DNA of 37,415 nucleotides, from positions 1 through 37,415 of IMG/VR virus record IMGVR_UViG_3300032560_000060. One strand, given 5' to 3'. Positions 1 to 37,415 of this stretch are shown here, in pieces. The translations under genes and the position numbers were made by a program. How positions within the stretch are numbered: the first letter of the stretch is position 1; each line of letters begins with the position of its first letter. Source of the DNA: a virus. Under the pieces are notes generated by a model. The model did not search any database and had not been told where the DNA came from. It saw only the letters and a list, made by a program, of their open reading frames with translations.

Positions 1-92
1 CTGCAGATGGCCAGAGGCCGCCCACCAGGGGGCGCGGCAGGGGAGGGGCGGCGGTGCCAGGTTGAGCATCCCTCCAGTTTGCCCGGGACGGG

Positions 93-127
93 TCAGTCGT
101 TCCGCTTGAAGACCAGCTTGTAGCTGA
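93..127 (-). other. Displaced 3' end of the host gene used as attB
   Basis: Read on the minus strand, 127 to 93 encodes SYKLVFKRND followed by TGA in GC-rich host codons. The same peptide and stop are encoded at the right junction in AT-rich codons (37264-37295). This fragment is therefore the original end of the host gene, cut off from its promoter and 5' part by the insertion. It has no start codon of its own and should not be expressed as a gene. Confidence 0.85.
118..127. repeat. attL: attL core (10-bp direct repeat)
   Basis: TTGTAGCTGA is identical to 37289-37298. It lies where GC-rich host sequence gives way to AT-rich phage sequence and 231 bp upstream of the integrase start. Identity beyond the 10 bp is broken, although the translated host frame stays identical through the repeat (see host gene entries). 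Confidence 0.8.
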
Positions 128-4887: not shown

Positions 4888-5865
4888 TTACCAGCAAGTA
4901 ATTACACACAAGCCATTACCACCATTACCACCATTAGCAGGACCATAACCAGTATAGGAACCACCTCCACCACCTCCACCACAGCCAAAACCACCATTAC
5001 CACCATTACCACCAGCTAAACCAGCAGAGGCAGACATACCAGAGGAAGCACCACCTGTTCCACCATAGAAATAGAACAGCTTATTAATGAAGGACAGACC
5101 ATTAGAACCATTACCACCAGCAGTAGGAGTTGTAGAACCACCAATACCACCAGGATTAGGTGGATAGAACAAATTACCAGCAGGAACAGTGAAGGAACCA
5201 CCAGCAGAACCACCTGTAGAAACAGCAGGTAAACCACCACCACCAGTTCCACCAGTCACAATTAAGCCAGTAGTAGGTAAGGTTAAGTTTCCACCAGCTA
5301 CAGTAGTTCCACCAATAATTCCAGCTTGACCAACTAAGGAAACATTGGTTGCTGCTGTTCCCCAACCAAACATACCTAAACCAGCAAGACAGCAATTAGC
5401 AATAGTAGTTACAGCACCAGCAGAACCAGCAGAACCAGCAGTAGCACCAGCAGCTACACCACCTCCACCACCACCTGAAGCAGCCATTAATAGGTGATTG
5501 GTTGTAATAGCTGGGTCTGGATAGATAGCTACATAGCTTCCATTACCTGTAGAACCAGCACCACCTACACCACCCTTACCACCATATGAAACAGAAACAT
5601 AAAGAACATCAGGTAAGAAAGCAGCAGGGAAACAGGCTATAGATTGAGCAGCAGAACCACCTCCAGCACCTCCAGCAGCAGTAGAAGCAGCACCAGCGAC
5701 AGAACCACCACCACCACCTCCAGAGCCTAATAGAAGGATATGGACCATGCTAATACCTCTGGGCTTAATCCATTGTTGCCATTGAGAACCACCAGTAATA
5801 GAGGTAGCATTAAAGATTTGTAGGTTATTACTGTATTGTGGTGGAAGGTTTTGATAATCTAACAT
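4888..5865 (-). CDS. Glycine-rich tail fibre tip / receptor-binding protein
   Basis: 325 residues. The N-terminal 35 residues probably attach to another fibre part. The rest alternates hydrophobic strands with polyglycine runs (LLLGSGGGGGG, GGGGGG, FGCGGGGGGGSYTGYG) and ends CVITCW. Such Gly-rich domains are common at phage fibre ends; the gp38 adhesin of T-even-like phages packs glycine runs as polyglycine II helices with loops that bind receptor. The same style of Gly-rich ending closes the 1661-residue protein at 10237. Located with the fibre genes at the end of the late block, it probably contacts the host surface. Confidence 0.75.
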   Translation of the reverse strand: MLDYQNLPPQYSNNLQIFNATSITGGSQWQQWIKPRGISMVHILLLGSGGGGGGSVAGAASTAAGGAGGGSAAQSIACFPAAFLPDVLYVSVSYGGKGGVGGAGSTGNGSYVAIYPDPAITTNHLLMAASGGGGGGVAAGATAGSAGSAGAVTTIANCCLAGLGMFGWGTAATNVSLVGQAGIIGGTTVAGGNLTLPTTGLIVTGGTGGGGLPAVSTGGSAGGSFTVPAGNLFYPPNPGGIGGSTTPTAGGNGSNGLSFINKLFYFYGGTGGASSGMSASAGLAGGNGGNGGFGCGGGGGGGSYTGYGPANGGNGGNGLCVITCW

Positions 5866-6846: not shown

Positions 6847-9138
6847 TTAAACTAAATATAATGTTTGCTTAATAAGTAAATCTAAACCAACAGTAGAAAC
6901 AGGAACCAAACCAGGGCCTATTAATGTCTGTTGAGCATTATTTATTGTTAATGCTAATGATGGAACAATAGAACCATTTGGAGTTGTATTAAACTTAATG
7001 GCTCCTGGTGTAGAGGTTCCTGATATTGTTCCTGTGCTATCAGAAGCAAAAGTAATAGAAGCAAATGGAGAATAAGTAGAAGCCTGACCACAGGCTACAC
7101 CTTGAATAGTAAAGATGGCTTGAGAATTGATTACAGCTACATGGCTACCAGAAGCAGCATTAGATAGAGAACCAGTTAATATAGCTGGTGATACTGTAGA
7201 ATGTTTATGTAGCCAAAGATTAGAATTATATGGGGCTGCTAATGAGCCAGTATCAATGATAGATGAAGATATGGTAGGGTTTTGATTTACACCATTTAAG
7301 GTAAAGGTATCTGCTGCTTCACCACCGCCAGCAGCACCAGCATAAAGCAAACCATTAGAATATAGGTTGGTTGCCCATAGAGTAGCAGTAGAGCCTACAT
7401 ACATTAAATCATTACTATCTGTTTGGAATGTAGAACCACCAGGAGTAGTAGCAAATAGGGGATAACCTGTAGCACCTGTGGTTCCTGTAAAGTCTGTTGA
7501 GCTACCACCTGTTCCAGTAGGTCCAGTTGGGCCTGTAGCACCTTGAATACCAGCACCAGTATTTCCTGTGTTTCCCTGTAATCCTGTTGAGCCTGTTAAA
7601 CCAGTATTACCCTGTGTTCCAGCACCAGTATTTCCTGTGTTTCCTTGTGAACCTGTAGCACCTGTGATAGATGAACCTGTAGCGCCAGTAGCACCTGTGA
7701 TAGATGAACCTGTAGCACCTGTGTTTCCTTGTAAACCAGTATTTCCTGTCTGTCCTGTATTGCCTGCACCAGTAGCGCCAGTGTTTCCAGTTAAGCCTGT
7801 GTTTCCTGTGTTACCTGGGGCTAAAACACCAGTTAAGCCAGTTGGACCTGTAGCACCTTGGTTTCCAGTTGTGCCAGTATTTCCAGCAGCACCACCAGAG
7901 CCAGTAGAACCAGAATTACCTGTAGCTCCAGAGTTTCCTACATTACCTGTAGCACCAGAGTTTCCTGTTAATCCATTTCCACCAGTTGAACCAGAATTAC
8001 CTTGATTTCCTGTTGCTCCAGAATTGCCAGTTAAGCCTGTGTTTCCTATGGCTCCAGTAGCTCCAGAATTGCCTGTAGCACCTGTGACTGTAGAAGCTGG
8101 ACCTGTAGCGCCAGAATTACCTGTAGCTCCTACACCACCTGTAGAACCTGAATTGCCTGTGCTTCCTGTGTTGCCAGTGTTTCCTGTTGGACCAGAAGCA
8201 CCAGTAGCACCTGTGACTGTAGAAGTAGGACCAGAAGCACCAGTAGCACCTGTGTTTCCTGTTTTGCCTATAATTCCAGTAGCTCCAGAATTGCCTGTTA
8301 ATCCAGTTAATCCTGTTCCACCACTATTTCCTGTTAGACCTACACCACCTGTAGAACCAGAGTTTCCTGTTAGTCCTACAGAACCAGTTGTGCCTGAATT
8401 ACCAGTAGCTCCAGAATTACCTTGGTTTCCAGTTGGACCTGTGTTTCCTGTTGGTCCAGTTGGGCCTGTAGCACCTGTGCCAGCAGTTCCATTAGCACCA
8501 GCATTACCTGTTGGTCCTGTGTTTCCCTGATTACCTACAATACCTGTAGAACCAGAATTACCCTGATTACCAGATAGGCCAGTTAATCCTGTCTGTCCTG
8601 TATTACCTTGGTTTCCTGTAGCTCCTGTGTTTCCCTGGCTACCTTGACTTCCTGTAGCTCCTGTTGAGCCTGAATTACCTGTGTTACCCAAAGAACCAGT
8701 AGCACCTGAATTTCCCTGATTACCAACAGAACCAGCATTACCTGTAGCTCCTGTTCCACCTGTGCCACCTGTGCCACCCTGATTACCTAAATTGCCTGTT
8801 GAACCTGAATTACCAGTGTTTCCTGTGGCACCTTGGCTACCTGTGTTTCCTGTCTGTCCATTAGCGCCAGTTAATCCATTGTTTCCAGTTAAACCATTGT
8901 TTCCTGCTAATCCATTAGCACCAGTGTTTCCAGTAGCTCCTATAGAGCCTGTAGCACCAGAATTACCTGTAGGTCCAGTTACACCTGTTATACCAACATT
9001 AATTCCAGATGCTCCAGTAGGACCAGGAATACCCTCTGGACCTTGAATAGCTACAGATAGAACTTTAGCAGGAACAATAGCTGGTGTTGTTACTGTCTGT
9101 ATAATTGGGGAAGGTGAAACAATAATTATATCTGACAT
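6847..9138 (-). CDS. Collagen-like tail fibre protein
   Basis: 763 residues. A short N-terminal domain (1-33) leads into an almost unbroken Gly-X-Y collagen-like region (about 34-555), which should form a trimeric triple-helical rod. The Y position is mostly Thr or Ser ([10 protein letters not shown]) rather than Pro, although a few GPTGPTG triplets occur. The last 200 residues are a globular head beginning with [17 protein letters not shown], which resembles a segment of the 1661-residue fibre (YYPVFATTAGGNTLET). Long proline-rich frames on the opposite strand are shadows of the repeat. It probably acts as a long side or tip fibre. Confidence 0.85.
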
Positions 9139-15729: not shown

Positions 15730-18570
15730 TCAGTTCTGTATTAAAGTAACATCAGCAGTTCCATTTATATAATCATTCTCAAGGCTCATTAATCTATATT
15801 GAATAGAGCCATTAATGGTTAGAAGTTGGAAGGGCTGTAAAGAATCCCAAGGTGTAGCTGTTGTGCTGTCTGGATAGGTCCAGCTTTGATTAGACAGGCT
15901 CCTGGGCTTGCCAAACCACATAGAAAGGGCATCAGACATAGCCTGGGCTTGTGATACATGCCAGACCATAGGATGTCCAGAGATAGTTAATAGCTTTCCA
16001 CCATCTTGATTAGTTCCACCTTGGCTAATAGGTAATGTATCAGCATAATAAGTTCCATCTTGTGTTTCTACCAATGTAATAGAATAAAAATCAGGCCAAC
16101 ATAAGGTATTGTCTATTTTTGTTTGTAAGATATTGGTTATATTGGTAGCAGTTTCAGAATTGTTTCTGCTAATAATCTTCATTGTTCCATTAGGTAATGG
16201 ATAGGCCATACAGTTTTGAAGCTGGGAAGCATGTTCTATTACTGATAAGGCTGTCTGTCCAGATGGATTAAATCTCTCTACACAGTAAGGAACCACAGTA
16301 TCAACCTGGAATACAGAGCCTCCAAGATGCCCTATAATTCTTCCTGTCTTGCTTGGGTCCCTCATAGCCTGGGCAAAGATTGGGAAGCCTTCTCTAATAG
16401 GTTCTGATAAGGCAATTGATTTATTAGCAGAAGCAGCAGGAGTAGAAGATAATAGGTATGACCATGTTTGAGATATGGTAGAGCCTGAATTATCTTGAGT
16501 TGTTAAACCACCTAAAATAAAACATTGAGTAGAATTAATAGCTACAAATGTATTAGGATAGAAATTAGATACAGTTCCAACATCAAATACAGCAGGAGTA
16601 ATAGATAATGTGGTTCCAGAATAATTTATCTTTGCATAAGCAGAAGAAGATATTAAATAGGCTCCATAAGGTGTAACAGCTAATTCTGGATTTACTATAT
16701 TAGATGGTATATTACATTGATACATAGCAGAGCCAGTATCTATTTCTAATTTTCCATCTATGGTTACACCAAGAATAGAACCAGCAGGACCAGTAGGGAA
16801 GTTTGAAATGCTACTTAACTTGTTTGTAAATCTCCATGTTAGATTTGTGCCTGTATTCCATCCTGTTCCATTCCAGGTAGAAGAAACCACCTGTGCTGTA
16901 TTAGAGGCTACTGTAAGCCTTCTCATAGAAAGGTAATCATAGAAAACAAGAGCAGGAAGAGTTATCAAATTAGATGTGGTGGTGCTATCTATCCATCCTG
17001 AAGGCATTTTGGTATAAGGTGCTGTAAATCCACTTATCAGAGCTACAGAGCCAGTATTAGGTGTTGGTCCATTGTCTTGTCCTGTTCCAGAGAAATTGTT
17101 ATAGGCTATATTTCTCCATCTGGCATTAGCTGATAAGGTTTTAGTTTCATAGAACATTAAGCTTGAAGGTGCTGATAATAATTGGTTTGTCCAGTCAGCA
17201 TGTAGGGTAGCTGGATAGCTGGAGTTTCTGTTACTTGTCCATCCAGAATCTATATTTCCTGTAAAGTTTGTAGTTATGCCAGAAATTAAATTACAGCCTG
17301 TTAATGTAGGCTCCATATCAGAAATAGAAGATAAAGAACATGAATTAGAATTATAAGGCTGTGAAGAGACAAAACCAAATATAGGTTCAATGGTTTGAGC
17401 CTGGGTAAATCTTGATAGGTCTAAATTGAAGGGTAGAGTAGCCTTTGTTAAGATGGTTCTAACATCAGTCATTACTACATCATTAGCTGTATCAGTGTCA
17501 AAATATATTCTGATATTAGCAGAAGGGTCCAAGTTTGTAATATCTTCTTTGACATAAATATAACAAGCTTCAGGATTTACAGCTAATACTGTATAAGTAG
17601 CAGAGTATGTTCCATTGACACAACAAAGAATATCACCAGGAATAATACCATTTACAGAATCTAAATAGATATAGCTATGGGCATTATCTTTAGCTAATAC
17701 AGTGAAATAAGAATTGGCAGTTGTATTAGCAGCTTGAACAGTAAATGATTTTTGATAGAAGGAAGAGTAGACATTTCCACCACCTCCAACAATAGTTGAA
17801 TTAGAATCTAAAGATGAACCACCAGAGCCAGCAGCAGTAGGCCAAGGTGTGTTAGATAAAACAATGGCAGATAAAACAGAACCATTAGCTACCCAATTAG
17901 GTAGACTTGCATAAGATAAATAGCCTATACCTGCTAAAGCCTGCCAACCATAAGAAGGTGATAAAATAACATCAATTACATTATAGGTATTTGCTACACC
18001 ATTGGTTTGAAAGCTGATTTGGTCGCCAGGAGAAACAGCCTGTGTAGCATCCCCTACAAAGAAGATATAATTGTTATATTGATTGATACCATGATAATTA
18101 ATTATCTCACCATAAGCAGAATAGCCTGTAAATGGGTATGAAGATTTAGCATTATTAGATGTAGGATTGGGCCTTTGCCATCCTGCTAAATATTGATTAG
18201 CTAATTCAATAGACCAATCTTGAGCAGATAATTCTATTGAATAACCACTTGCTGAATTATGCTGAACAATATTTGTAGGGTCAATGATACCAGTAAAAAC
18301 AATATTGCTATCAACAGTTAAGGTAATGTATGGAGGATATAAGGCATTTGTAGAAGCTAATTGTGTCTGTATAAAGGTCCAGGCAGAGCCAGTAGGGTCT
18401 GTAAACTCTACTGTTAAATCACTTGGTTTAATCTTGGTTAGCTGGTCGCCACTATCTAAACTCCATGATTGTTTACCTATCTTTGTTACAGGATAACCAG
18501 TAACCAATAGGTTATTGCCTATCATAGCTGTGCCAAGGTTCTGATATAGATTTACCACCAATGACCGCAT
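15730..18570 (-). CDS. Tail hub / baseplate protein with large central insertion
   Basis: 946 residues. The start (WSLDSGDQLTKIKPSDLTVEFTDPTGSAW, then ITLTVDSNIVFTGIIDP and YSIELSAQDWSIELANQYLAG) looks like the first domains of siphophage tail hub proteins. Hub-like sequence resumes near residue 780 (SGQTALSVIEHASQLQNCMAYPLPNG then KIISRN). Between them are several hundred beta-rich, Ser/Thr/Asn-rich residues, including kelch-like patches (CFILGGLTTQDN), which suggest an inserted propeller or carbohydrate-binding module. It would sit at the distal end of the tail tube. The gene follows tape measure plus GIY-YIG, and its ATG overlaps the GIY-YIG stop (TAATG). Confidence 0.65.
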   Translation of the reverse strand: MRSLVVNLYQNLGTAMIGNNLLVTGYPVTKIGKQSWSLDSGDQLTKIKPSDLTVEFTDPTGSAWTFIQTQLASTNALYPPYITLTVDSNIVFTGIIDPTNIVQHNSASGYSIELSAQDWSIELANQYLAGWQRPNPTSNNAKSSYPFTGYSAYGEIINYHGINQYNNYIFFVGDATQAVSPGDQISFQTNGVANTYNVIDVILSPSYGWQALAGIGYLSYASLPNWVANGSVLSAIVLSNTPWPTAAGSGGSSLDSNSTIVGGGGNVYSSFYQKSFTVQAANTTANSYFTVLAKDNAHSYIYLDSVNGIIPGDILCCVNGTYSATYTVLAVNPEACYIYVKEDITNLDPSANIRIYFDTDTANDVVMTDVRTILTKATLPFNLDLSRFTQAQTIEPIFGFVSSQPYNSNSCSLSSISDMEPTLTGCNLISGITTNFTGNIDSGWTSNRNSSYPATLHADWTNQLLSAPSSLMFYETKTLSANARWRNIAYNNFSGTGQDNGPTPNTGSVALISGFTAPYTKMPSGWIDSTTTSNLITLPALVFYDYLSMRRLTVASNTAQVVSSTWNGTGWNTGTNLTWRFTNKLSSISNFPTGPAGSILGVTIDGKLEIDTGSAMYQCNIPSNIVNPELAVTPYGAYLISSSAYAKINYSGTTLSITPAVFDVGTVSNFYPNTFVAINSTQCFILGGLTTQDNSGSTISQTWSYLLSSTPAASANKSIALSEPIREGFPIFAQAMRDPSKTGRIIGHLGGSVFQVDTVVPYCVERFNPSGQTALSVIEHASQLQNCMAYPLPNGTMKIISRNNSETATNITNILQTKIDNTLCWPDFYSITLVETQDGTYYADTLPISQGGTNQDGGKLLTISGHPMVWHVSQAQAMSDALSMWFGKPRSLSNQSWTYPDSTTATPWDSLQPFQLLTINGSIQYRLMSLENDYINGTADVTLIQN

Positions 18571-19046
18571 TATACTACCTTATTCCATCTTTTATAAACT
18601 GCTTCAGATATTTTAGCTTTATGTTCCTGTGTTTTTGGTTTAGACATTTTAGCTATTGTTTCTTTAGATTTTAATTTTCCTGTGTGGGATATAGACATTT
18701 TATTTTTTGTTTTTATAGACATTTGTTGCTTAGCAATAGACATTTTTTCTTTTGTTTCTTGTGATAAATTCCACTTACATCCTAAATTTGAACCAGCTAT
18801 TTTACATATGTTGTATTCTGGTTTAAATATGTTTATACATTTCTGTTCAAAGTATAGTAAATCAACCTTTATAGGATTACAATTAGCAAGTATTTCAAAT
18901 ATAAAATTTTCTTTGCCATATTTATTAAATGCTGCTGTTAGATGTTTGTTGTATTTACCTGACCATCTTTTTTCAATGTTAACAGATGAACCAATATAAC
19001 ATTTATTGTTAATTGTATTAGTAATAATATATATTCCAGATGACAT
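18570..19046 (-). CDS. GIY-YIG homing endonuclease (free-standing, first copy)
   Basis: 158 residues. GIY at 4-6, YIG at 17-19, catalytic R27 and E67 (LLYFEQK) are all present. The C-terminal half has NUMOD3-like DNA-binding units (LSQETKEKMSIAKQ, then SKETIAKMSKPK and TQEHKAKISEAV). Such enzymes cut an allele lacking the gene and spread by repair. It is inserted between the tape measure and hub genes, with no intron features. Its stop overlaps the hub start as TAATG, so it has been fitted into the operon without breaking it. AAGG lies about 10 bases before the start. Confidence 0.88.
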   Translation of the reverse strand: MSSGIYIITNTINNKCYIGSSVNIEKRWSGKYNKHLTAAFNKYGKENFIFEILANCNPIKVDLLYFEQKCINIFKPEYNICKIAGSNLGCKWNLSQETKEKMSIAKQQMSIKTKNKMSISHTGKLKSKETIAKMSKPKTQEHKAKISEAVYKRWNKVV

Positions 19047-23836: not shown

Positions 23837-25792
23837 TTAAGATAACTTGAAGTTACCACATTTAGCAAAAGCATTAGGCTGTAATACACCAATGTCTACA
23901 TACTGGCGAGCAGTAAGAATAGTGATACCTTCAGAGAAGCGAGTTTGAATGTCAACCATAAACTCTGTTGGACCCATTAAGGCAATTTCAAGATTAGAGA
24001 AATCACCAAAAATTAATGTGTGGTAAAGACTTGAAGCTATTGGAACATTGGTAGAGGTGAAGGCTTTGTAACCATTAATCTTGCCAGCATCAGCAATTGG
24101 GAAACCAGCACCACCAGAGAACTTGGCAGTAGTTTCAAGAACACCCATTAAACCAGGGGTAGTAATGAAAGCAGACTTATCTAAATCTACTGCATACTGG
24201 TCAACAAGAGCCTTTAGGTTATTAACAGAGGTAAAGGTAGGAACAGCAGAGGCACCAAGATTACCATTCTGGATGCTGGAAGCAGCAGATAGTAAACCAT
24301 TGACAGTATAGGCACCAGTTACACCATTGATAGCCATGTTATCAATAGCTAAGGCAAACTGTTTAACCATGTCGCCTCGGAGAACTTCCTGGAGGTCAAC
24401 AATAGATTCTTTCTGGAGTTCATCAGTTAGATAAACAGTAGAAACTAAAGCATGGGGTGTATAGGGAACCTTTACAAAGTCAACATAGCTATTAGTTGGA
24501 ACACCAGAATCTTCAGCCTTGTTTACAACAGTAGTAGCTACTGACTGGCGAAGATAGCTTAAGCTACCAGAGCCAGAGCGAGTTTTAGCACCAGCAGAGA
24601 GACAGACAGCGCGGGCGCGAAGTAGGTCAAGGAAGCCAATATTCTGTTGATAGACAGCATTAGCCCCATATTGACCAGTAGTCATGTTGGAAGCAACAGT
24701 ATCACCAGACCAGTTATCGGCGCGAGTGAAGAGGTCAGCAGTAAAGGCTCTTTCACCCTTTTGATTAATAACACCAGCTAAACTCTCATCAAGATTCTTA
24801 AAATCTCCCTTAATGGCATTAGCTAATCCTCGGTATAACATTTCATTAGTTAGCATGTTTCTATTTTCCTTTATAAGTATTATGCTTTGTTCTTTTGTAT
24901 TAAGAAGCTCTTTCCTGGCTTCTGTAATATCAGTTGTTCTTGATAGAATTAAATCTATCTCTACTTCAGTTTTTAATTTTTGTGCTACAGCAATATTTCT
25001 TAAAGCAAGTAATTCAGTATTAAGTAATTCTGTTTTATCATTAATTTCTAATGACCTTTTATTATCTTCTTCATCTAATTCTTCATTAACTTCTAATGGA
25101 GTAGCTTCTACTGGTGTTTCACCAGCAGGTATTTCATCCTCTGAAGTCTCTGCTACAGGCTGTTCAGCCTCTTCTGTGGCTTCTTCAGTAGCCTGGACTT
25201 GCTCTAATGCCTCTACAGCAGCTACACCTTCTGTTAGCTCTGTCTCTATGGCTTCTTCAAGCTGGGCTTCATTAACTTCAGCTTCTTCATCTTCTGTATC
25301 TGCTCTGCCAACTCCTACAGAGTTATCAGCAGGTAAACCTACCAAGCTTCCTTCATATGGTTGCCATTTGGTTACAAGGAAATCATTAGGTGTATCTTCT
25401 AATTCAGCTTTTCTAACCTTATAATCAAGGATTCTATAACCTATAGAAACATCAGAAATAATACCATCTAAAATATCTTGTCTTACAGATTGGGCATCTG
25501 CTCTACCAGAGAAATAAGCATCACCTCTTAATTTCTTTGTATCAGAATCTAATCTGATATTCTTTAATCTTCCAACAGGTAATGTAGTATCATCATGATT
25601 AATTAATAGAGGTAAACCATTAGGCATTGTCCTGGACATATCAATATTGTCTACATTGTGTAGTAGTATTTCATTTCCAAAACTTCTTAAAACAGGTGTT
25701 TCAGAAGATAAAGACATTGAGATAAAGGTATTATCTTCTTTAGCATTATCTATAGCAAAGCTTCTTACTTGCCTTAATTTATATTTCATCAT
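23837..25792 (-). CDS. Prohead protease - scaffold - major capsid fusion
   Basis: 651 residues in three parts. Residues 1-165 are an HK97-type prohead protease with H66 (LLINHD) and S116 (SDVSIGY) as likely catalytic residues and YEGSLVGLPAD after them. Residues 165-312 are acidic and coiled-coil-like (EEATEEAEQPVAETSEDE) and should act as a scaffold or delta domain removed on maturation. Residues 313-651 are an HK97-fold capsid protein (NIGFLDLLRARAV, GDMVKQFALAIDNMAING, FGDFSNLEIALMGP). An AAAGGA site precedes M313, so capsid protein may also be made alone. Arginine codons differ sharply between the halves. AAAGG precedes the first start; M1 or M2 may be used. Confidence 0.92.
   Translation of the reverse strand: MMKYKLRQVRSFAIDNAKEDNTFISMSLSSETPVLRSFGNEILLHNVDNIDMSRTMPNGLPLLINHDDTTLPVGRLKNIRLDSDTKKLRGDAYFSGRADAQSVRQDILDGIISDVSIGYRILDYKVRKAELEDTPNDFLVTKWQPYEGSLVGLPADNSVGVGRADTEDEEAEVNEAQLEEAIETELTEGVAAVEALEQVQATEEATEEAEQPVAETSEDEIPAGETPVEATPLEVNEELDEEDNKRSLEINDKTELLNTELLALRNIAVAQKLKTEVEIDLILSRTTDITEARKELLNTKEQSIILIKENRNMLTNEMLYRGLANAIKGDFKNLDESLAGVINQKGERAFTADLFTRADNWSGDTVASNMTTGQYGANAVYQQNIGFLDLLRARAVCLSAGAKTRSGSGSLSYLRQSVATTVVNKAEDSGVPTNSYVDFVKVPYTPHALVSTVYLTDELQKESIVDLQEVLRGDMVKQFALAIDNMAINGVTGAYTVNGLLSAASSIQNGNLGASAVPTFTSVNNLKALVDQYAVDLDKSAFITTPGLMGVLETTAKFSGGAGFPIADAGKINGYKAFTSTNVPIASSLYHTLIFGDFSNLEIALMGPTEFMVDIQTRFSEGITILTARQYVDIGVLQPNAFAKCGNFKLS
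24854..24872 (-). promoter_or_regulatory. Internal ribosome binding site and start for the capsid domain
   Basis: AAAGGA at 24872-24867 is followed after 10 bases by ATG (24856-24854), in frame as M313 (MLTNEMLYRGLAN). Internal starts that make a second product from a head gene are known in lambda (Nu3 inside C). Here it would yield a 339-residue capsid protein without the protease. Confidence 0.6.
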
Positions 25793-30482: not shown

Positions 30483-30541
30483 GTAAGCCTATTAAAGACA
30501 AGATTAATGATTTGTATCAAGTTTTGTGTAGAAAAAGCAAA

Positions 30542-30560
30542 GCGTCTGCGCGGCACCCGC
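30542..30560. other. cos: Candidate cos site
   Basis: A GC-rich 19-base island in AT-rich DNA, directly upstream of terS, with interrupted dyad symmetry of the form GCG-N2-TGC-N3-GCA-N2-CGC centred on 30551. cosN sites of lambda-type phages are GC-rich, imperfectly symmetric and next to the small terminase gene. Overhang position and length cannot be told from sequence alone. The 30483-30677 interval otherwise holds only one small doubtful frame. Confidence 0.6.
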
Positions 30561-30575
30561 TAAAACAGAACCTTT

Positions 30576-30662
30576 TTAGAGGACCCGGCAGAAATAGCAG
30601 GTGGACATACCTTTAAGTAATGCCTTTGTATATCCTATTGTGCTGGCTTGTTTAGTTGTCAT
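30576..30662 (-). CDS. Doubtful 28-residue reading frame near cos
   Basis: MTTKQASTIGYTKALLKGMS then TCYFCRVL, starting 15 bases after the preceding gene, with AAGAG about 9 bases upstream. It ends shortly before the cos island. It is short and unrecognised; it may be coding or just a spacer. Confidence 0.25.
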   Translation of the reverse strand: MTTKQASTIGYTKALLKGMSTCYFCRVL

Positions 30663-30677
30663 GTTGATTACTCTTGC

Positions 30678-31364
30678 TTACTTCTTTGCAGATGCTAATG
30701 CTTCAGACAATACTTGTGATGCTATGATGTTGTATCTATATTGAATAACATTGGTAGCTGTCTGATACCAAGCTATCTTCTTTGGTCTGTTAGAATGTTT
30801 GATTAAGGTATACAGAAGCCTTACACCAGTCTTTCTATTGGTGCCTCTTTTCCTCTTCCTATTATCATCTGGTGATGTTCTTTGTAGAATTAAAGGTGTT
30901 CCAGTTTCTTTGCTGTGAATTAAAAAGGTTCTTTCTAATCCCTGTATACCAAACTTGGTTTTATTAAGCTGTAGATTCTTAACCTTTAAGGGATTATCTG
31001 GACCAATGATAGAATTACCAAATACCTTTGGGTTAGGCATTGTTAGCCATGTATGCCCTTGATATGGTATGTGTTCAGCACCAGTTTCAAAGTCTGATAA
31101 GTAAGCTAAAGTAATAGGCATTTCAATAGTTACTGACATTCTTGTCTTGGTTGCCCATTGACCCTTATTAATCTTTACCTGTGATATAACCCAGGGCCTT
31201 CTGATATGAAGATTTTGTGAAAGCATTATCTTTTCATCAGTTTGAATCTCTTTAGCAACTGTATTTAAAACCTTACTGAGAATGAAACCAGATTGATTAT
31301 CTTGCCCTAATTCTCGCAACTGATTAAGTATAGACTCTGAATTAATGGTAAGTTTTACTTGCAT
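30678..31364 (-). CDS. Putative virion protein, gpZ-like
   Basis: 228 residues. FILSKVLNTVAKEIQTDEK, the RRPWVISQVKINKG stretch, GLERTFLIH and a C-terminal RYNIIASQVLSEALA resemble the layout of lambda gpZ-type minor tail/neck proteins (N-terminal helix pair, beta core, C-terminal helix). In lambda Z lies after the capsid; here the gene is upstream of terS and cos, which would be unusual. It starts at the TAATG overlap with the second GIY-YIG gene. The family assignment is tentative. Confidence 0.45.
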   Translation of the reverse strand: MQVKLTINSESILNQLRELGQDNQSGFILSKVLNTVAKEIQTDEKIMLSQNLHIRRPWVISQVKINKGQWATKTRMSVTIEMPITLAYLSDFETGAEHIPYQGHTWLTMPNPKVFGNSIIGPDNPLKVKNLQLNKTKFGIQGLERTFLIHSKETGTPLILQRTSPDDNRKRKRGTNRKTGVRLLYTLIKHSNRPKKIAWYQTATNVIQYRYNIIASQVLSEALASAKK

Positions 31365-31906
31365 TATGAAGCCTTTATATATCTATTCTTAGCAGCAATA
31401 GACATTTTTAATCTTGTTTCATCTGATACTGGTTTTCTAATTCTGTTACTTGCAGCAATAGACATTTTTAATCTTGTTTCATCTGATATTATATCCCGCT
31501 GTTTAGCTATTTCTGACATTAATAATTTTGTTTTTTCTGAAAATGGATTTCTAAACTGTTTACTTGCAGCAATAGATATTTTTAATCTTGTTTCTTCATT
31601 AGGTTTTCCACCCTCACCACCTAATGTCTTGTTATATCCAACAGCGGGATTAGAAGCATCCGATAAATAAATTAAATCTGTTTCATATTCATTTAATAGT
31701 GAACCATCACAATATATAATAGGTTCAAAGGTAAAAGCGGTAGGACCATACTTATTATAAGAAGCCTGTAAATGTTTATTTTTGTGTTTATTATTTTTTA
31801 GCTGATAATTATGATTATACAGTCTATTGGTTAAATCCGTAGATTGACCAATATAAATCTTACCATTGATTGTATTAGTAATTTTATAGATGCCTGAGTT
31901 GTTCAT
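31364..31906 (-). CDS. GIY-YIG homing endonuclease (second copy)
   Basis: 180 residues. GIY 5-7, YIG 18-20, R28 and E75 (LNEYETDLI) form the nuclease site. The C-terminal half has four NUMOD3-like units, three nearly identical (DETRLKMSIAAS). It is clearly related to the 18570 protein but distinct in sequence. Its stop overlaps the next ATG as TAATG, the same junction type as the first copy. It is placed between the sigma-like gene and the gpZ-like gene. Start context is poor in Shine-Dalgarno character and contains an AGAATTACTT motif. Confidence 0.88.
   Translation of the reverse strand: MNNSGIYKITNTINGKIYIGQSTDLTNRLYNHNYQLKNNKHKNKHLQASYNKYGPTAFTFEPIIYCDGSLLNEYETDLIYLSDASNPAVGYNKTLGGEGGKPNEETRLKISIAASKQFRNPFSEKTKLLMSEIAKQRDIISDETRLKMSIAASNRIRKPVSDETRLKMSIAAKNRYIKAS
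31391..31599 (-). repeat. Three direct DNA repeats inside the GIY-YIG gene
   Basis: Near-identical copies of about 35 bp at 31391-31428, 31452-31489 and 31566-31599 encode the ETRLKMSIAAS units of the DNA-binding tail. Their high nucleotide identity implies recent duplication or gene conversion. Confidence 0.75.
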
Positions 31907-34753: not shown

Positions 34754-34899
34754 GATTTTCTATTTTTTTCCTAAAAATCTACATTTCTATGTAATTCAGT
34801 CAGATACAATTTTTTAGGGTCTGTGTCCATTGAAAATAATTTAATTTTTTTTCTTCTACTCCTGCTTCAAGTTCCGATAAATAGGGTATGGACACAAAA

Positions 34900-34978
34900 T
34901 GTCCGATGCTATGGACACAGCAAAAAAGTGTGTCCGATGAATGGACATAAAATTAAAAATATGTCCGATGAATGGACA
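34900..34978. promoter_or_regulatory. Operator or iteron array: three TGTCC-N7/8-GGACA sites, 31 bp apart
   Basis: Inverted repeats at 34900-34917, 34931-34947 and 34962-34978 share TGTCCGATG and GGACA arms and begin exactly 31 bp apart, about three helical turns, so dimers would bind on one face. A degenerate copy (GTTCCGAT to GGACA) spans 34871-34894, and a diverged one may lie at 34579. The array ends 48 bases before the DNA-binding protein gene at 35027. Three operators suggest a lambda-like switch; iterons of a replication origin are the alternative. Confidence 0.7.
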
Positions 34979-35026
34979 CAAACCTAAAAAATTAACACAA
35001 TTAAATAATAGAAAAGGAAACAGACA

Positions 35027-35590
35027 ATGGACCTAAATAAAATATCAACAGCAGCAACAGCAATAGACAAGCCAGAAGGTATCAAGGTAGCAGATATTGT
35101 TATAAAATTAGGTTTGACTCCAGACCAATACCTTAATAGAGAAGTTAGTAAAGCATTAAGTATATTAGGATGGAAAAAAGGTGACAAGAAATTGAAGGAT
35201 ATTAGTGGTAGATACTACCTCTGGTTTTCACCTGAAATTAAAACAATTAATGTAAATCATTCTGATTATCTAATAATGAAGGAAGAAAGGTCACAGTTCC
35301 TAAAAGAGAAGAGGGAATTACAAGCCAAGTTGGATAAGGCTACAATAGAATTAAGTCAGATGAAGGCCAGAATGTATGAAGATATGGAAAAGATTAGAGA
35401 AAGGGCTTCAATTGAGCAGGAAGGCACCTTAAAGCCACAGAAGGAAGAAATGAAGGAAGAAGTAAGGCTTGCTGAATATGATAAAATAGATGCCTTCTTT
35501 AAAGAATACAAAGATACAGAAGATACCAAGGAAGATTGGGAATCAGATTTTGAAAGAAGAATTAAGAATAGATTCATAATGGCAGAATAG
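35027..35590 (+). CDS. Predicted DNA-binding protein (winged helix plus coiled coil)
   Basis: 187 residues. Residues about 15-68 (KVADIVIKLGLTPDQYLNRE, LSILGWKKGDKKLKDISGRYYLW) look like the winged-helix unit found at the end of phage primase/helicase and VapE-type proteins. Residues 80-135 are a long charged coiled coil (EERSQFLKEKRELQAKLDKA). It should form a dimer that binds DNA. As first rightward gene beside the operator array it is the best candidate for the switch regulator or origin-binding protein. AAAGGA lies about 8 bases before the ATG. Confidence 0.6.
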   Translation: MDLNKISTAATAIDKPEGIKVADIVIKLGLTPDQYLNREVSKALSILGWKKGDKKLKDISGRYYLWFSPEIKTINVNHSDYLIMKEERSQFLKEKRELQAKLDKATIELSQMKARMYEDMEKIRERASIEQEGTLKPQKEEMKEEVRLAEYDKIDAFFKEYKDTEDTKEDWESDFERRIKNRFIMAE

Positions 35591-37229: not shown

Positions 37230-37263
37230 AAATATTCTAAAATACTTTGTAAGTCTAATGTTA

Positions 37264-37415
37264 TCAATCATTTCTCTTAAAAACTAATTTGTAGCTGAAG
37301 GGGTTGTCCAGCTTCGGATGGGTACAGGTCACCTGGAGGGCCAGGGAATCCCCGTCCTTCCGCATGGAATAGACGTACTTCAGGGTGTAGTCATCTCCCC
37401 TGAGGGTCTGGATCA
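37264..37415 (-). CDS. Host protein gene, 3' part, with phage-supplied C-terminus
   Basis: Open minus-strand frame entering from the right edge (IQTLRGDDYTLKYVYSMRKD, then GDSLALQVTCTHPKLDNPFS) and finishing YKLVFKRND plus TGA. Codons up to the att core are GC-rich host codons. From there the last eight codons are AT-rich and come from the phage, yet give exactly the residues of the displaced host end at 93-127. The insertion therefore leaves the protein unchanged. I do not recognise the family; only 49 codons are visible. Confidence 0.8.
   Translation of the reverse strand, partial: IQTLRGDDYTLKYVYSMRKDGDSLALQVTCTHPKLDNPFSYKLVFKRND
37289..37298. repeat. attR: attR core (10-bp direct repeat)
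   Basis: TTGTAGCTGA is identical to 118-127. It is embedded in codons of the host gene that continues into the right flank. Confidence 0.8.

What the first reader, a model, noticed from the sequence alone, without database searches (positions are those of the whole stretch)
23837..25792. Arginine codons switch from AGA/AGG to CGC at the protease-capsid boundary
Counting by eye in the 651-codon gene, all 17 Arg codons before M313 are AGA or AGG. After M313, seven of ten are CGC, two CGA and one AGA. The phage otherwise strongly avoids CG, so the capsid half stands out. Either the capsid domain was joined from another source, or selection for fast translation in a GC-rich host acts on the most abundant virion protein only. 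The switch falls at an internal AAAGGA-ATG.
Basis: seen in the sequence. Interest (0 to 1): 0.8.

Follow-up and report, generated by a model that had tools for sequence, protein, structure and literature searches.

The report
Capsid gene with hidden second start
In this virus of bacteria, one gene encodes both a cutting enzyme and the shell protein, and it changes its spelling of arginine where the shell part begins; related genes suggest the shell part also has its own start signal, so that more shell than enzyme is made.

Summary
The recount is exact. On the minus strand, 17/17 Arg codons before M313 are AGA/AGG; after it 7 are CGC, 2 CGA, 1 AGA (about 2e-6 by chance). Other genes use CGN 11/267 times, so the switch is real and confined to the capsid gene. 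All synonymous choice shifts, most sharply at codons 339-351, the predicted delta/mature-capsid junction, 26-38 codons after M313. Recent foreign origin is unlikely: CpG avoidance is otherwise intact in the capsid part (NCG 0/89; C before G 2/81), and the protease-capsid fusion is an old family (phrog_617). The host is GC-rich (62%), with CGC its main and AGA a rare Arg codon. Across 79 non-redundant fused relatives the capsid part uses fewer rare Arg codons than the protease part. In 57/79, and 31/42 in a second set, an in-frame ATG with a strong Shine-Dalgarno sequence lies in the protease-delta linker, and the Arg step falls there; synonymous shuffling says this site is selected (z -5 in both sets). 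Best reading: a nested gene, with a long protease-delta-capsid product plus a more abundant capsid product, and codon selection downstream of the inner start. This gene is the most extreme codon case, but its own candidate start (M313) is displaced and less certain.

The parts
23837..25792 (-). Fused prohead protease - delta - HK97 major capsid protein gene, 651 codons
   Evidence: Pfam Peptidase_S78 36-158 and Phage_capsid 387-644; phrog_617 over residues 7-645; AlphaFold2 model
25298..25735 (-). Protease domain, codons 20-165; Arg all AGA/AGG
   Evidence: AF2 pLDDT mostly above 90 in this stretch; codons
25079..25297 (-). Acidic linker, codons 166-238; where 57/79 relatives have the internal SD-ATG; this gene has no ATG between codons 57 and 312
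24776..25078 (-). Helical delta (scaffold-like) domain, codons 239-339
   Evidence: AF2 secondary structure
24867..24872 (-). AAAGGA, Shine-Dalgarno-like sequence upstream of M313
   Evidence: read; duplex energy -4.9 vs -2.1 for the gene's own start and a median of -4.0 for gene starts of this phage
24854..24856 (-). ATG of M313, candidate internal start of a 339-aa capsid product
   Evidence: same alignment column as SD-ATGs in the L011/L012 group and L015/L018
24740..24778 (-). Best-supported codon-usage change point, codons 339-351, at the end of delta and start of the disordered N-arm
   Evidence: likelihood scan and permutations; model
23840..24742 (-). Mature-capsid part, codons 351-651: 7 CGC and 1 CGA, no AGR; pyrimidine-ending bias; CpG avoidance otherwise intact
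   Evidence: HK97 fold
1..127 (.). GC-rich host flank and left attachment core TTGTAGCTGA (118-127)
37289..37415 (.). Right attachment core (37289-37298) and GC-rich host flank

Best explanation
The Arg switch is codon selection on the capsid-coding part of a protease-delta-capsid gene. In this family the gene is nested: the long product is translated from the first start, and a protease-free capsid product from an in-frame internal start. The short product is made in excess, so codons downstream of the inner start are under stronger selection for efficient or accurate translation. In the AT-rich, CpG-avoiding phage of this window the default Arg codon is AGA, which is rare in its GC-rich host. 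Only the capsid part is selected strongly enough to use the host's main Arg codon CGC despite the CpG cost (CGT is ruled out by a near-absolute avoidance of ACG/CGT). Here the inner start is most likely M313. SHOWN by computation: the switch, the intact CpG avoidance, the host's Arg usage in a 3 kb flank, the family-wide codon step, and the selected internal SD-ATG in most relatives. INFERRED: that the short product exists, that it is more abundant, and that M313 is the start in this phage.
For: Switch and permutations. Host flank Arg usage CGC 27, AGA 1 of 51. Capsid part: NCG 0/89 and C before G 2/81, as elsewhere (14/2816; 22/1600), but C before other bases 43% vs 28%. Family, 79 genes: non-CGY Arg .333 to .227 (p 6e-7), GC3 .644 to .707 (p 8e-11); this gene ranks first in Arg and pyrimidine-end contrast. 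174 control ORFs, first vs second half.452 to .418.647 to .657. The delta domain is capsid-like in Arg usage (.207) and not protease-like (.359). Internal SD-ATG in the linker in 57/79; 62% of linker ATGs vs 11-14% elsewhere; null given the protein 34%, z -5.0. Residue after that Met is small or N-terminus-like in 86% vs 47%. Arg step at the ATG.35-.53 before.23-.28 after. Replicated in 42 further genes: 31/42, z -5.0.34-.64 before.16-.26 after. M313 has a better SD than the gene's own start.
Against: In this gene the sharpest change is 26-38 codons after M313, later than in the family. 12 of 164 internal ATGs of this phage have an SD at least as good. AAGGAA could follow from a conserved Lys-Glu pair. 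Relatives without a strong linker SD-ATG show the codon contrast too (.209 vs .135, MWU p 0.08), so the inner start is not shown to cause it. No expression data.
Confidence: 0.6

Rival explanations
1. No internal start in this phage. One polypeptide is made and cut, and codon selection acts on the mature capsid only, for accuracy: errors in 415 co-assembled subunits harm the virion, while the protease and delta parts are discarded.
For: The change point (339-351) falls at the delta/mature junction rather than at M313. M313 is not exceptional among internal ATGs. Relatives lacking a strong linker SD-ATG show the contrast too.
Against: In the family the delta part, thought to be removed on maturation, already has capsid-like Arg usage, and the step falls at the internal ATG, which is itself selected.
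Confidence: 0.27
2. Domain join: the capsid-coding DNA was recently acquired from a phage with other codon habits.
For: Sharp change in overall synonymous usage. This protein is a long, lone branch in both domain trees, so a donor cannot be excluded by phylogeny.
Against: CpG avoidance outside Arg is identical on both sides, so a donor would need the same rare CpG habit (next lowest relative 0.35 vs 0.08). The fusion is family-wide, and the same-direction contrast recurs across the family.
Confidence: 0.08
3. The shift follows local composition or mutation bias rather than translation.
For: GC rises from .34 to .42 and GC3 from .16 to .30 in the capsid part.
Against: The change is codon-specific: NCG codons stay absent and C before G stays at 2.5% while CGC rises. 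Other phage genes with similar or higher GC keep AGA/AGG.
Confidence: 0.03

Closest known systems
Fused prohead protease - major capsid genes (phrog_617; VP882, phiHAP-1, ep3, RcCronus, R4C)
   Same: Same S78 protease plus HK97 capsid in one ORF; R4C capsid 8gta matches residues 386-637
   Different: This gene has the strongest Arg switch of 79 relatives, lacks the linker ATG that most have, and lies in an extremely CpG-poor phage
Lambda C/Nu3 and Mu I/Z nested protease/scaffold genes (from memory)
   Same: Would work the same way: an in-frame internal start within a protease gene gives a more abundant protease-free product
   Different: There the short product is the scaffold; here it would be the delta-capsid protein itself
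Herpesvirus UL26/UL26.5 (from memory)
   Same: Protease fused to an assembly protein, with a more abundant protease-free form
   Different: Made from a separate transcript; the short product is a scaffold
Codon adaptation of phage structural genes (PMC2266997)
   Same: Structural genes carry host-preferred codons in many phages
   Different: Described between genes; here the step is inside one ORF

Membership tests
Fused protease-major capsid family (phrog_617) | N-terminal S78 prohead protease domain | tested here: met
   PF04586 E 3e-7; H66 and S116 invariant in 68 relatives; catalytic role recalled, not tested
Fused protease-major capsid family (phrog_617) | C-terminal HK97-fold capsid in the same ORF | tested here: met
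   PF05065 E 4.5e-24; Foldseek to 8gta and HK97
Fused protease-major capsid family (phrog_617) | Full-length profile match | tested here: met
   phrog_617 residues 7-645, E 8e-64
Nested in-frame start gene (C/Nu3 type) | In-frame internal ATG with SD, selected at nucleotide level, in the family | tested here: met
   57/79 and 31/42 genes; synonymous-shuffle z -5.0 in both sets
Nested in-frame start gene (C/Nu3 type) | The same feature in this gene | tested here: inconclusive
   M313 has an SD of -4.9, but 12/164 internal ATGs do as well; position displaced from the family site
Nested in-frame start gene (C/Nu3 type) | Short product made and more abundant | not testable with these tools
   Needs proteomics or ribosome profiling
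Lambda Nu3-type scaffold | Short product is a scaffold that is not part of the shell | tested here: not met
   The short product would include the whole HK97 domain

The most novel reading that the evidence does not exclude
Fused protease-capsid genes of tailed phages are dual-start genes: a minor long product carries the protease into the procapsid as part of a capsid subunit, and a major short product, started in the linker, supplies most of the shell; codon usage steps at the inner start. In the window's phage the inner start has moved to M313.
Probability: 0.5. Interest if true: 0.65.

Novelty: new variant of a known kind. Interest (0 to 1): 0.55.

Why it matters
Fused protease-capsid genes pose a stoichiometry puzzle: one protease per shell subunit if only one product is made. 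A selected internal start in most relatives would resolve it and would mean that these genes are annotated incompletely. The codon step inside one reading frame gives a sequence-only readout of where translation increases. The window's phage adds a natural contest between CpG avoidance and translation, won by translation only in the capsid.

Tried and rejected
Average host codon adaptation as the explanation: the capsid part does not rank first. Internal starts near the M313 column as a family feature: not enriched (5/79); the enriched site is upstream in the linker, a region I chose after reading the sequences, hence the second set. Recombination by domain trees: uninformative, lone long branch. 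A phage methyltransferase behind the CpG loss: none among the proteins scanned. tRNA genes and Rfam families in the window: none. Within-phage variation: records L002, L003 and L026 are 100% identical to the window over their overlaps, so no polymorphism test. Literature on an internal start in such fusions: no hit in the open library, which is not proof of absence.

Full report
Observation. The gene runs on the minus strand from 25792 to 23837. Elsewhere in the phage 256 of 267 Arg codons are AGR and CGT never occurs. The window's CpG observed/expected ratio is 0.08. The shift covers most amino acids: A-ending codons of four-fold boxes and ATA nearly vanish from the capsid part, and C-ending two-fold codons rise from .19 to .36. 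A likelihood scan places the change at codon 351, or 339 without Arg, above every synonymous permutation; M313 fits 4.6 log units worse. So the switch is sharp, but it lies somewhat downstream of the internal ATG.

What the gene is. Pfam finds a Peptidase_S78 domain and a Phage_capsid domain, and phrog_617 covers nearly the whole protein. The AlphaFold2 model shows a protease at residues 20-165, an acidic linker to 238, helices to 339 (a delta or scaffold-like domain), a disordered arm at 340-379, and an HK97 fold from 378, with R4C and HK97 capsids as best structural matches. The codon change therefore sits at the predicted junction of delta and mature capsid. Fused genes are common: one scan matched at least 582 relatives.

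Not a foreign capsid. If the capsid DNA came from a CpG-tolerant source, CpG should be raised at all codon classes. It is not: NCG codons 0/89 (elsewhere 14/2816) and C before G across codon boundaries 2/81 (elsewhere 22/1600), although C before other bases rises from 28% to 43%. CGC is a codon-specific exception. CGT is excluded because ACG/CGT is almost absent from the phage (0 and 4 occurrences in the core).

Host. The window ends lie in GC-rich DNA with a shared core TTGTAGCTGA, and record L033 extends the right flank by about 3 kb. The host flank is 62% GC with CpG 0.88; Arg is CGC 27, CGG 15, AGG 5, CGT 3, AGA 1. So AGA, the phage default, is rare in the host, and CGC is its main codon. 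The capsid part is, however, not the gene most like the average host gene, so the selection is for particular codons and not for host composition.

Family test. In 79 fused genes under 80% identity, the capsid part has fewer non-CGY Arg codons (.333 to .227, p 6e-7), higher GC3 and more C-ending two-fold codons than the protease part; the window's gene ranks first in Arg and pyrimidine-end contrast. First-versus-second-half controls in 174 other long ORFs show much smaller changes. By domain, delta is like capsid in Arg usage, and the step lies in the linker.

Internal start. That led to the linker. There, in-frame ATGs carry strong Shine-Dalgarno sequences far more often than other ATGs (34% vs about 5% at -6 kcal/mol). 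57 of 79 genes have one at -4.5 or better (28 of 37 at under 50% identity). Given the amino acids, synonymous shuffling expects 34% of linker ATGs at that strength against 62% seen (z -5.0), while other regions show no excess or avoidance. The next residue is S, T, D, N, P or A in 86%, against 47% (including G) for other Met. The Arg step coincides with this ATG and GC3 dips just before it, as at a translation start. Because region and threshold were chosen after looking at this set, I repeated the tests on 42 further genes under 80% identity to it: 31/42, z -5.0, same Arg step. R4C, whose mature capsid structure is known, has M189 with an SD of -9.5; the capsid paper's text does not mention a protease.

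This phage. It has no ATG between codons 57 and 312. M313 has an SD of -4.9, better than the gene's own start (-2.1) and than the median start (-4.0), but 12 of 164 internal ATGs do as well. The same alignment column holds an SD-ATG in the L011/L012 group, where nine members keep it without synonymous change (2.5th percentile), and in L015/L018. A conserved Lys-Glu pair could account for part of this. An ATA at codon 221 with a good SD is a weaker alternative.

Judgement. Shown: the switch, its codon specificity, the host's Arg preference in a small sample, the family-wide step, and the selected linker start. Inferred: that the short product exists and dominates, and that M313 serves here. Accuracy selection on the mature capsid without an internal start remains the main rival for this phage. 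Limits: codon and SD statistics treat related genes as partly independent, the SD energy uses a generic anti-SD, and the host sample is 809 codons.

Noticed in passing
37240-37300 and 85-127; L033:2960-3020: The phage carries the displaced 3' end of the host gene it enters, with identical amino acids (SYKLVFKRND, stop) but recoded: host AGC TAC AAG CTG GTC TTC AAG CGG AAC GAC TGA, phage AGC TAC AAA TTA GTT TTT AAG AGA AAT GAT TGA. This suggests long association with this host while the phage stayed AT-rich and CpG-free.
   Followed up: partly
whole window, 141-37290: CpG is at 0.07-0.08 of expectation in a phage of a host with normal CpG (0.88), far below all relatives seen (next 0.35). ACG/CGT is nearly absent (0 and 4). 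No methyltransferase was found among the proteins scanned; cause unknown.
   Followed up: partly
34870-34980: Three spaced copies of TGTCCGAT(GA)ATGGACA-like palindromes before the rightward gene at 35027, probable repressor operators; several of the phage's few CpGs lie in them.
   Followed up: no
30540-30590: A cluster of five CpGs in a non-coding gap (AGCGTCTGCGCGGCACCCGCT), no Rfam match; possibly a structured or protein-bound element.
   Followed up: no
18570-19046 and 31364-31906: Two GIY-YIG/NUMOD3 homing-type endonucleases; the second is much less CpG-depleted (0.45) than the rest, suggesting recent arrival.
   Followed up: no
6847-9138 and 4888-5865: Collagen-like (Gly-X-X) and glycine-rich tail-fibre-like proteins with almost no Arg.
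   Followed up: no
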